Source: Homarus americanus (lineage: Eukaryota > Arthropoda > Malacostraca > Decapoda > Nephropidae). Taken from it: a DNA stretch of 64,000 nucleotides. The notes beneath the pieces are model-generated. The model had not been told where the DNA came from. It saw only the letters and a list, made by a program, of their open reading frames with translations, and searched no databases. Each line of letters starts with the position of its first letter. Position 1 is the first letter of the stretch. Both the position numbers and the translations under genes were made by a program. The stretch lies in the NCBI RefSeq assembly GCF_018991925.1, contig NW_024756914.1, positions 3,393,848 through 3,457,847 of the forward strand, given 5' to 3'. This document shows positions 1,170 through 4,300 of the stretch, in pieces.

Positions 1170-1308
1170 CTTCTGCAGCTTGAAAACCATTGAAATGCAC
1201 AGGCCATGCATAGTTAACCATGGATGACAGCCACGGATGGATGTTGGTTAAGGAGGTGCCAGAGTACTTTGGAGGCTCTGGTGCTCCTTCAGCACTTTTC
1301 TCTTCAGG
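1170..1308 (-). CDS. norpA: PLC beta exon 12b (linker end and Y-box entry, divergent alternative)
   Basis: This exon is 139 nt, 46 codons plus one base. A short linker part [14 protein letters not shown] is followed by [25 protein letters not shown] and NGFQAAE. It aligns along its second half with exon 12a, with roughly 17 of 31 positions identical (Y, G, HP, LSS, VNY, PV, F, GF, AE). TNIHP and VNYA are closer to vertebrate PLCB4 than 12a is. QPVKFQGF is replaced by WPVHFNGF. The acceptor is a GT-rich run ending GTAG and the donor is G|GTATTG. The in-frame TAG at the acceptor closes the frame upstream. Phases equal those of 12a. Together these features support a functional alternative exon; no transcript has been seen. 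Confidence 0.82.
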
Positions 1309-4300
1309 CTACACACACAAGTAACATGCAAGAGGGCCGTGCAATGAACAGTATCACAAATTGAATGCCAGACATGCAGGTAGAGAAAATATCATTGTAT
1401 ATCATAGGCAAAATAGGAGAATAAGTTGTGTACATGCCTGATGAAACATCACTTTGTGGGCAGGTAAACGTAATGACAGAACAGTAAGTCAGGAGAAAAT
1501 TCAGTGACACCATGAGAATATATGAAATTTAATATTATAGAATGTAGAGAAAGAAAATAATGGTTAGTTAACAAAATGAACTGAAAAATATAGAAATATA
1601 CAATACTGTACAGTACGGTATTTGGGTTATGCCATTAAACACCATTTAAAAATGAAAGTGATGGCACTTTCTTTTATTTTGTACAATGATATTTTTCAAT
1701 ATTGTATAATAATTCTGCCCCTCATTAAGTTTCCTGTACCGAAAATTTATCTTTTATCAACCAAATTTCTAAACACACATCATTGTACATCCCCGCATAC
1801 TGGTCTATCACATTACAAACAGTATTTATTTTCACTTACTAGAATGTCATCTTTCATTACATTTATACTCTACTGCATATGCAGTACTTCAGATCATCAA
1901 ATTTATTTACTTATTTTTTTAATTAGGGGATTAGCCCACCAGGGCACAGGTCAATGACCCACATCAGAGCCTGGGGGGTGAAAAAATAAATAAATAAATA
2001 AAATAATTTTACCAATTACCTTACAGCCAGCATTTTTTGATCATGTAAATATCTCAGTATATTTAGCAAAGAAGATCCAAATTTATTCTTTCAAGTAGGT
2101 AATCTTCTCAAATGTACGTACAGTGTATATACTTTTCCTCACTAATCATCCACTGGAATTACAGTATAGAAATGATTCTCACTTTACAATATATACGTAC
2201 TGTACTATATTAAATGTCAATTCTCAACTTTCTTTTTTATTCATATTTCCTTCACAACCTTCCCACGCTTCCCAATTTGACAATGCCTAACAAGTCATCC
2301 AGGTTATCTCAAGGCTATTATAACACTAATGGATCTATCACACAAGGAATAGTTCCATACCCAAGGAGTTATTTTAGATAAATTTTTGCCTGGGCCACAC
2401 ACATTCAACTTGCATCTGAGGTGAATTTTAATACTGTATCTATTTACACATTATATACACAGGAATATTAATCACAGATGAAAAATACTAGCACCCATTA
2501 TGAAACACACAAAAGTACTCCTGCTCTTGGCTTTATACAGTATATCAATACTGTACTTGTGACGGTAATACATTTTCTCTTTTCATGAAAATCAACTTTA
2601 AATCTGAGACTTGCATTTGTCAGTTAGTAAAATACTCAGAAAGTTATGTTATAATGTCTTTCGTGTTCTTGTGGCAATAAAAATACCTTGTTCTCCTTTC
2701 ACCTAATGTTGGTTCATTTTTTAAAACAATATTCACATTTTGAGATCTCCAATACTGTACTGTATTGTATATTTTTGTTCAAGTTTCCATTTTCTCAGTT
2801 GGTCTTTCATATCTTCCCTTGCTGGCATTGTTATATTACTCTGCTTCAATTTACTTCTACAGCGAAGTAATGAAGTTTAACACACTAACAATTTACAAAA
2901 TACTGTATAATGTGTGCCTATAATGCACAAATACTGTATTATAAAAAATACCTTTATTTAGGAAATGGTGACAGAGTAATACATACCCTTGTTAGAAAAA
3001 GCATATGTGTGTGTGTGTGTGTGTGTGAAGAAGAAAGAATATACTATACTGTACAACAAAAAATTCCATATGAAAATTACAATCACACATTGATGTAACT
3101 CATAACATTATAACCCGTCAAACATAAAATTGCAGGCACAGAACCCATGCAGACAGGCTTGAAAGTAGCAAGCAAGGTTACCTTCTGCCACATCAAAACC
3201 CTGGAACTTGACCGGCTGGCAGTAGTTGACGTAGGAGGAGAGGACAGGGTGGACGTGGGTGGTGGCGCCTGTATACTGGTAGTAGAGGAAGGCTCGCTCT
3301 TCGGCCGTCAGGGGCTTATCATCTTCTAGCGAGGGCTGCGACACAGGGGTGGTGATGGTAGTGCACGAGTTACTCTACGAGGGACAGAGAAGGAGACGGA
3401 GGCTGGAGAGGTGAGGCGAGACGAGCTAGTAGCAAGGGTGAAGAACTCAGTGCTGGAATGGCTTTTGTCTTTCTAGCCTTGATGAGGGAGGGAAAAGGAT
3501 GCCTTCATACTACACAGTATTGTGGGGTAATGTGGGAGGGTGGGGGGGAGCAAGTACAATTACAGGCAGCATAAATAGTGTAAGAACAATGTAACTTCTC
3601 TTCAGCAAGAGGGACATCAAGTACAGTACAGTATTACCAAATATCATGCTGTATAATAAAAATTGAATTGGATGATGGCTGACAATGAATATGTACTGTC
3701 TGGTCATTAAGGGGCAGGGGATGGGAGACAGACAACATCTACAGGCTGAAAAGTGCAATATGATCAGAAACCATACTAAATTTTGCTTGGCCATTAGAGA
3801 TCTGTTTACACAACTTGTGCATACCCCAAGTGTGCATACATGTTGGGTAAGTTATAAAGGATAAAAACCATAAAAATAATCATTGTACGTAGGATAGTAT
3901 GAACAACTAAAATTATAAATATGAACATTCAAGTATCAAATCAAAGCGACTGTGATTACTTGTATGCAACTTACAACCATAAAATGCATGTATCCAAGCA
4001 GTCATTCTGGCCAAACTGTACTGGATGGAGGCGAGACCATCACCAGTGGTATCTTATGATTAGCGAGGGGCAGACTTATTTATTGGCACTAGATAACAGA
4101 TTACTTTAGGATTTAAATGAGGGCAATCATTCACGCAAAATATTATTTATAAAATTGCGGGGATTAGGTTTTAAACAAGAATTTCAAAGGAAACTGAAGA
4201 ATAAAAAGCAAAGTGACAGACTCAGGAGGATTAGTCAGTTAATTAGTCAGAAGAGTATAGATCAAAGTTCAATTAGAATTTGAAAAAATATAGAAGGATA

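What the first reader, a model, noticed from the sequence alone, without database searches (positions are those of the whole stretch)
1170..3374. Candidate mutually exclusive exons 12a/12b at the X-Y linker and Y-box entry of a NorpA-type PLC
Two exons 1.9 kb apart encode alternative versions of the same piece of enzyme. Seen: both start at phase 0 and end at phase 1, each with its own AG/GT borders, and each closed upstream by a TAG that is part of its own acceptor. They share about 17 of 31 residues over the first Y strand. 12a has [12 protein letters not shown]; 12b has [12 protein letters not shown]. The linker part differs strongly: about 33 residues in 12a against 14 in 12b. Known: in PLC beta the X-Y linker plugs the active site until the enzyme meets membrane. 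Inference: the cell could switch between two autoinhibition lengths and two barrel-entry strands. The norpA alternative splicing I know of (exon 4A/4B) is elsewhere, so this pair may be undescribed.
Basis: partly seen in the sequence, partly recalled or inferred. Interest (0 to 1): 0.9.

Follow-up and report, generated by a model that had tools for sequence, protein, structure and literature searches.

The report
Lobster PLC swaps its active-site plug
The lobster's light-signalling type of phospholipase C gene carries two interchangeable exons for the stretch that is expected to plug the enzyme's active site; crayfish, shrimp and a woodlouse have both too, so cells can probably choose between two brakes, though what difference they make is unknown.

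Summary
Confirmed and extended. The window lies in the Homarus americanus norpA/PLCB4-type PLC-beta gene (minus strand). Exons 12a (3182-3374) and 12b (1170-1308) are tandem-duplicated alternatives. Both run from phase 0 to phase 1 and join in frame to exon 13, 136 bases beyond the window. Using both, or neither, brings an early stop, so only one can be used per mRNA. They are the only two such exons in 73.5 kb. A genome search with 12b finds itself, 12a and nothing else below E = 1. Predicted lobster isoforms use each. Both occur in Procambarus and Penaeus vannamei, and in tandem in a woodlouse gene model. Orthologues (79-100% identical) are much closer than the lobster pair (18/33). Contigs of cDNA size carry each form. 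12a has an inner acceptor, so there are three linker lengths, not two. The exons replace the segment that aligns with the PLC-beta3 active-site contact. 12a keeps a pre-plug motif seen in other animals; 12b and insect exons lack it. A difference in autoinhibition is inference: structure models failed and no tissue expression data were available. Isoforms are already predicted in databases; ten paper searches listed no description of the pair.

The parts
3182..3374 (-). Exon 12a, long form (193 nt, phase 0 to 1, 64 aa): linker, plug-equivalent QYTGATTH, first Y strand [12 protein letters not shown]
   Evidence: in predicted Homarus protein P0013
3182..3335 (-). Exon 12a, short form (154 nt, 51 aa), inner CAG acceptor, starts PSLEDDK
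   Evidence: predicted Homarus isoform X2 (P0011), Procambarus X3 (P0012), P. vannamei X3 (P0017); acceptor read
1170..1308 (-). Exon 12b (139 nt, phase 0 to 1, 46 aa): short Pro/Gly-rich linker, plug-equivalent KYSGTSLT, first Y strand [12 protein letters not shown]
   Evidence: in predicted Homarus isoform X3 (P0003); only 100% match in the genome
6467..6658 (-). Exon 11 (upstream partner; holds ILIKNKR end of X domain and acidic linker start)
14824..14903 (-). Exon 4A-type alternative exon (80 nt)
   Evidence: [26 protein letters not shown] in P0003
13488..13567 (-). Exon 4B-type alternative exon (80 nt)
   Evidence: relatives using this type
7914..8172 (-). Exon 10, X-domain part
8435..8645 (-). 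Exon 9, X-domain part with NSSHNTY
8780..8940 (-). Exon 8, EF-hand part
9932..10032 (-). Exon 7
10546..10681 (-). Exon 6
17062..17199 (-). Exon 4 of this count (precedes the 4A/4B-type pair)
19494..19553 (-). Exon 3
20099..20185 (-). Exon 2
38641..38724 (-). First coding exon ([13 protein letters not shown]...WTE, then GTGAGT)
   Evidence: same start as P0003

Best explanation
A pair of tandem-duplicated, mutually exclusive exons in the norpA/PLCB4-type PLC-beta gene of the lobster. SHOWN from sequence: each exon is complete; both fit the same upstream and downstream exons; by reading frame only one can be used per productive mRNA; both are conserved as separate lineages in malacostracan crustaceans; and both occur in predicted proteins and in cDNA-sized contigs of crustaceans. 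INFERRED: the cell chooses by splicing between an ancestral-type segment (12a: conserved EE..YxY pre-plug motif, tether of 32 or 19 residues) and a derived one (12b: 13-residue Pro/Gly-rich tether, HPW, VHFNGF). Each replaces the linker stretch that in PLC-beta3 contacts the active site, plus the first Y-domain strand, while the rest of the X and Y domains is shared. The likely effect is a different resting activity and a different Gq-driven rise in turnover. Exclusivity is enforced at least by frame (decay of double or skipped products) and probably by a regulator acting on the weaker, UG-rich 12b acceptor.
For: Exon borders, phases and shared exon 13. Both-in and both-out products stop early. 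Only two exon-12 cores in 73.5 kb and one 100% 12b match in the genome. Predicted Homarus proteins with 12b, 12a-short and 12a-long; both types in Procambarus, P. vannamei and Armadillidium vulgare. cDNA-sized contigs: 12b in P0005, P0009, P0051, P0222, 12a in P0020, P0124. Orthologues 79-100% identical against 18/33 between the lobster pair. 12b one clade, 99/98 and 100/99. Plug position by alignment and PLC-beta3 linker deletions (PMC10691244, passages). Both forms match Pfam PI-PLC-Y well, 138.2 and 141.9 bits.
Against: No lobster RNA reads were examined; lobster isoforms are database predictions, and the cDNA-sized contigs are from unnamed organisms. The plug alignment is low-scoring (E about 1). 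AlphaFold models failed in the catalytic core. One A. vulgare model contains both exons in one protein, which would contradict exclusivity if it were real rather than a prediction error. No RNA pairing that would enforce exclusivity was found.
Confidence: 0.78

Rival explanations
1. 12b is a decaying or unused duplicate exon, carried along but not part of working mRNAs.
For: Weaker 12b acceptor (59% pyrimidine against 88% for 12a); no lobster reads seen here.
Against: 12b is open, 79-89% identical to seven relatives including krill and an isopod, and forms one clade. It appears in proteins from cDNA-sized contigs (P0005, P0009, P0051, P0222) and in predicted isoforms of several decapods.
Confidence: 0.04
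2. The pair is real but the two forms are functionally equivalent: the exchange has no effect on activity and serves only expression control (for example choice of a poison both-in or both-out product).
For: Both forms keep the conserved frame Y..G....HP.LSS.VNY..PV.F.GF and score alike as Y domains. Double inclusion and skipping both give early stops.
Against: Each form is separately conserved, including HFNGF in 12 of 12 12b-type cores and near-identity of 12a over 63 residues among decapods, which suggests form-specific constraint.
Confidence: 0.17
3. 12b belongs to a second, neighbouring PLC gene or is an assembly artefact.
For: Other PI-PLC-Y matches exist in the genome, one of them 7 Mb away on the same contig.
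Against: No further exon-12 core was found in 73.5 kb around the pair; exon 13 follows directly; the arrangement recurs in other species' isoform sets; the genome search with 12b finds only itself and 12a below E = 1.
Confidence: 0.01

Closest known systems
Drosophila norpA exons 4A/4B (recalled; no call gave text on it)
   Same: Same gene family and same device, tandem alternative exons of equal phase; an equivalent pair is in this gene at 14824-14903 and 13488-13567
   Different: 4A/4B lies in the PH-domain end, not the linker or Y-domain entry; I know of no 12a/12b equivalent in flies
PLC-beta3 X-Y linker autoinhibition (PMC10691244, passages read)
   Same: Exon 12 covers the aligned segment of the linker contact residues T575-V584
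   Different: In the human enzyme the segment was studied by deletion; here nature offers two versions by splicing. Action on the lobster enzyme is untested
Mammalian PLC-beta splice variants (PMC12195575, passages read)
   Same: Splice variants of PLC-beta enzymes
   Different: Those described for beta1 and beta2 differ at the C terminus, and the beta4 variants in an internal segment, the C terminus or inclusion of exons; the passages I read describe no swap of linker and Y entry
Ancient mutually exclusive exons of arthropods, e.g. N-cadherin (PMC2655722) and Dscam1 (PMC8042237), seen as search listings with abstract starts only
   Same: Tandem exon duplicates kept as alternatives in arthropod genes
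   Different: Different genes; the exchanged part here is an enzyme's presumed inhibitory plug

Membership tests
Mutually exclusive exon pair | Adjacent homologous exons with the same phases | tested here: met
   18/33 identical, both phase 0 to 1
Mutually exclusive exon pair | Joint inclusion or joint skipping is not productive | tested here: met
   Early stops in both cases
Mutually exclusive exon pair | Transcripts carry one or the other | tested here: inconclusive
   Predicted isoforms and cDNA-sized contigs carry one each; the A. vulgare gene model P0024 carries both; no lobster reads
Mutually exclusive exon pair | Regulated choice between tissues or cells | not testable with these tools
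   No expression data
norpA/PLCB4-type PLC-beta | PH, EF-hand, X, Y, C2 order with PLC-beta C-terminal part | tested here: met
   (C2 listed for P0003 only; PLC-beta_C at 22.1 bits, below its 27.6 cut-off) and match of residues 869-1095 to chain 6irc
norpA/PLCB4-type PLC-beta | Nearest relatives are norpA and PLCB4 rather than other PLC-beta | tested here: met
   Listed hits named 'no receptor potential A' (P0038, P0047, P0097) or beta-4; no full-gene tree was built
norpA phototransduction function | Expressed in photoreceptors and needed for the light response | not tested
   No expression or genetic data
PLC-beta X-Y linker autoinhibition | Linker segment next to the Y domain sits in the active site | tested here: inconclusive
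   Aligned position fits; structure models failed there
PLC-beta X-Y linker autoinhibition | Removing the segment raises basal activity | not testable with these tools
   Needs enzyme assay

The most novel reading that the evidence does not exclude
The pair is as old as the common ancestor of insects and malacostracans. Malacostracans kept both the ancestral PLCB4-like plug (12a) and a NorpA-like plug (12b); insects kept only the second. With the 4A/4B-type pair and the inner acceptor, one gene can yield six enzyme forms (2 x 3), so that resting noise and Gq gain are set by splicing in different photoreceptors or other sensory neurons.
Probability: 0.25. Interest if true: 0.72.

Novelty: new member of a known kind. 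Interest (0 to 1): 0.55.

Why it matters
PLC-beta must be nearly silent at rest and rise steeply with Gq. Its X-Y plug is a main brake, but in the work I read it was studied by deletion. Crustaceans appear to have kept two natural versions of that brake in one gene since before decapods and isopods parted. That makes a clean test possible: otherwise identical enzymes differing only in plug and tether. If the forms differ in basal rate or Gq gain, splicing becomes a way to tune noise and gain in photoreceptors and other Gq-driven cells.

Tried and rejected
Structure prediction of two lobster isoforms (P0003 with 48 rows, P0011 with 46 rows) gave mean pLDDT 65.9 and 64.0, with most of the Y domain below 50. 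I draw nothing from them and ran no fold search. A helix at residues 514-521 of the 12a model is too uncertain to count.

Exon tree. A first run (40 rows drawn from 39 of the 228 retrieved proteins) mislabelled the barnacle row as a 12b row; corrected (33 rows). On 40 columns 12b groups with insect exons (98/99) and a single malacostracan 12a+12b clade is rejected (AU p 0.027). With the six poorly alignable upstream columns dropped (34 columns), the rejection disappears (p 0.15) and the 12b+insect clade is no longer in the best tree, though not rejected (p 0.27). The groups were named after the sequences had been seen. So the pancrustacean age is only suggestive.

RNA pairing that could enforce exclusivity: inverted repeats between 1 and 6470 are long only in a mobile-element-like stretch (5019-6088); I saw no convincing docking set near both exons. 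Rfam at gathering thresholds listed nothing in 1-20500. A plasmid tblastn with 12a found nothing, as expected.

Paper searches (all ten used) gave listings; from two papers I read passages (PMC10691244; PMC12195575). No listed title or abstract start described this exon pair. The library lacks most subscription journals. I recall that a lobster PLC-beta was cloned from olfactory tissue around 1999 but saw no text of it, so I cannot say which exon it carries.

Full report
What the window is. The held genome places the window at contig C33581:3393848-3457847. A protein search returned a Homarus americanus protein (P0003) that is 100% identical over the searched part and lies on a contig of the same length, 11,306,751 bases. 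The gene runs on the minus strand from the first coding exon at 38641-38724 past the low end of the window. Its product has PH, EF-hand, X, Y and C2 matches (C2 is listed for P0003 but not for P0011) and a C-terminal part like chain 6irc. Named relatives outside crustaceans in the listed hits include 'no receptor potential A' and beta-4 proteins. I did not build a tree of the whole gene family.

The observation. Exons 12a (3182-3374) and 12b (1170-1308) are as described: AG/GT borders, phase 0 to phase 1, 1,873 bases apart. I fetched the adjoining DNA. The next exon, EKNVHHNMSSFSE..., begins after 136 further bases, at phase 1, so ...FDVAE and ...FQAAE both run into it in frame. Putting both exons in gives one further residue and a stop; leaving both out gives 16 residues and a stop. 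The frame therefore allows exactly one. A profile of the exon core finds these two and nothing else convincing in six frames of 73.5 kb (79.8 and 70.1 bits, next 14.4). A genome search with 12b finds itself (E 4e-26), 12a (E 0.0095) and six matches at E 1.8 or more; only the best candidates are scored there.

A third form. Homarus isoform X2 (P0011), Procambarus X3 (P0012) and Penaeus vannamei X3 (P0017) start exon 12a at PSLEDDK, 39 nt inside it, behind a CAG. The stretch before the plug is thus 32, 19 or 13 residues in 12a-long, 12a-short and 12b.

Use. Predicted lobster proteins carry 12b (P0003), 12a-short (P0011) and 12a-long (P0013, a partial protein). Both types occur in predicted isoforms of Procambarus clarkii and Penaeus vannamei. 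12b is also seen in P. japonicus, P. chinensis, Scylla paramamosain and the krill Meganyctiphanes norvegica; 12a in Palaemon, Petrolisthes, Cherax, P. monodon, two Armadillidium species and, as a variant, Hyalella. An Armadillidium vulgare gene model holds 12a followed by 12b in one protein. That gives the same order; I take the joint inclusion as a prediction error, but it is on record against strict exclusivity. Six proteins come from contigs of 2.9 to 5.7 kb: P0005, P0009, P0051 and P0222 with 12b, P0020 and P0124 with 12a. I worked with the 228 proteins listed by three searches, which show 120 of 6000, 120 of 580 and 36 of 36 matches.

A second pair. The exons at 14824-14903 and 13488-13567 are another pair that fails the both-in and both-out test; I equate it with fly exon 4A/4B by recall. 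Of 28 proteins tabulated, 22 could be read at both sites: 9 are 4A+12a, 5 are 4A+12b, 4 are 4B+12a and 4 are 4B+12b; six could not be read. The two choices are therefore not strictly coupled across these species.

Age. The lobster exons share 18 of 33 aligned columns. Homarus 12a is 82-100% identical to six other 12a exons and Homarus 12b is 79-89% identical to seven other 12b exons, by best local alignment. Both types occur in decapods and isopods, so the duplication is older than their split. 12b is one clade in both trees (99/98, 100/99). Whether insect exons descend from the 12b copy is open: a 40-column alignment supports it, a stricter 34-column one does not decide.

Two linker types. 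Of 228 exon cores in 227 of the 228 proteins (P0024 has two, P0230 none), 12 of 12 with HFNGF have HPW and lack the pre-plug motif EE..YxY.GAT. 95 others with HPW also lack it, and those of them that carry a name are insects or the springtail Folsomia. 108 have no W and carry the motif. 13 do not fit, among them Daphnia. The set is redundant and the motif was defined after seeing the sequences. I read 12a as the ancestral type, shared with vertebrates, chelicerates and flatworms, and 12b as a derived, shorter, Pro/Gly-rich type.

Mechanism. In PLC-beta3 the linker residues T575-V584 contact the active site. Deleting them raised basal Vmax about 700-fold and left only about twofold Gq stimulation, against about 20-fold in the wild type (PMC10691244, passages). 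Taking the 1234-residue chain 8uqn as full-length numbering, the offset makes these residues TDEGTASSEV. One search aligns them with KYSGT--SLT of 12b; the match is weak (E about 1) but anchored by the VNY..PV.F strand. By the alignment 12a has QYTGAT-T there. Pfam places the start of the Y domain at the 27th residue of 12b and the 32nd of 12a-short, so each exon holds the first 20 residues of it. The exon swap thus changes the tether, the plug-equivalent residues and the first Y strand, and leaves the rest of the catalytic domain unchanged. That this alters basal activity or Gq gain is inference; the AlphaFold models were too poor to help.

Splicing control. The 12a acceptor is pyrimidine-rich (88% over -20 to -4), the 12b acceptor weaker and UG-rich (59%). 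From that I infer 12a as the default and a UG-binding activator for 12b; neither was tested. No RNA pairing model was supported.

Novelty. The isoforms are already predicted in databases, but none of ten full-text searches listed a paper on the pair, in a library without most subscription journals. The kind of system is known; this member, in the presumed inhibitory plug of a signalling enzyme, appears unreported.

Noticed in passing
window 5019-6088: A pair of inverted arms (77 nt, 97% complementary, then 34 nt, 91%) 1.07 kb apart end to end in intron 11, with an inner open frame [30 protein letters not shown] (5513-5656 +) that reminds me of a GIY-YIG endonuclease of a Penelope-like element (recalled; no family search run).
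   Followed up: partly
G000 C33581:10.65 Mb and C16360:10.57 Mb (L012, L013): Other PI-PLC-Y matches in the genome; no convincing exon-12-type core in the 8 kb fetched around each. Their PLC subfamily was not determined.
   Followed up: partly
C-terminus of P0003 (encoded outside the window): The lobster protein ends in EFFC, which recalls the short Cys-bearing C-terminal PDZ ligand of fly NorpA (recalled).
   Followed up: no
window 45962-46581: A tandem array whose translation repeats a unit like TPTTTPLWYSHDYTFMVLPRLHLYG in more than one frame.
   Followed up: no
window 3336-3374: The 39-nt stretch between the two 12a acceptors encodes [13 protein letters not shown], nearly identical in several decapods, although it is optional and Ser/Thr-rich: possibly a regulated phosphorylation segment.
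   Followed up: no
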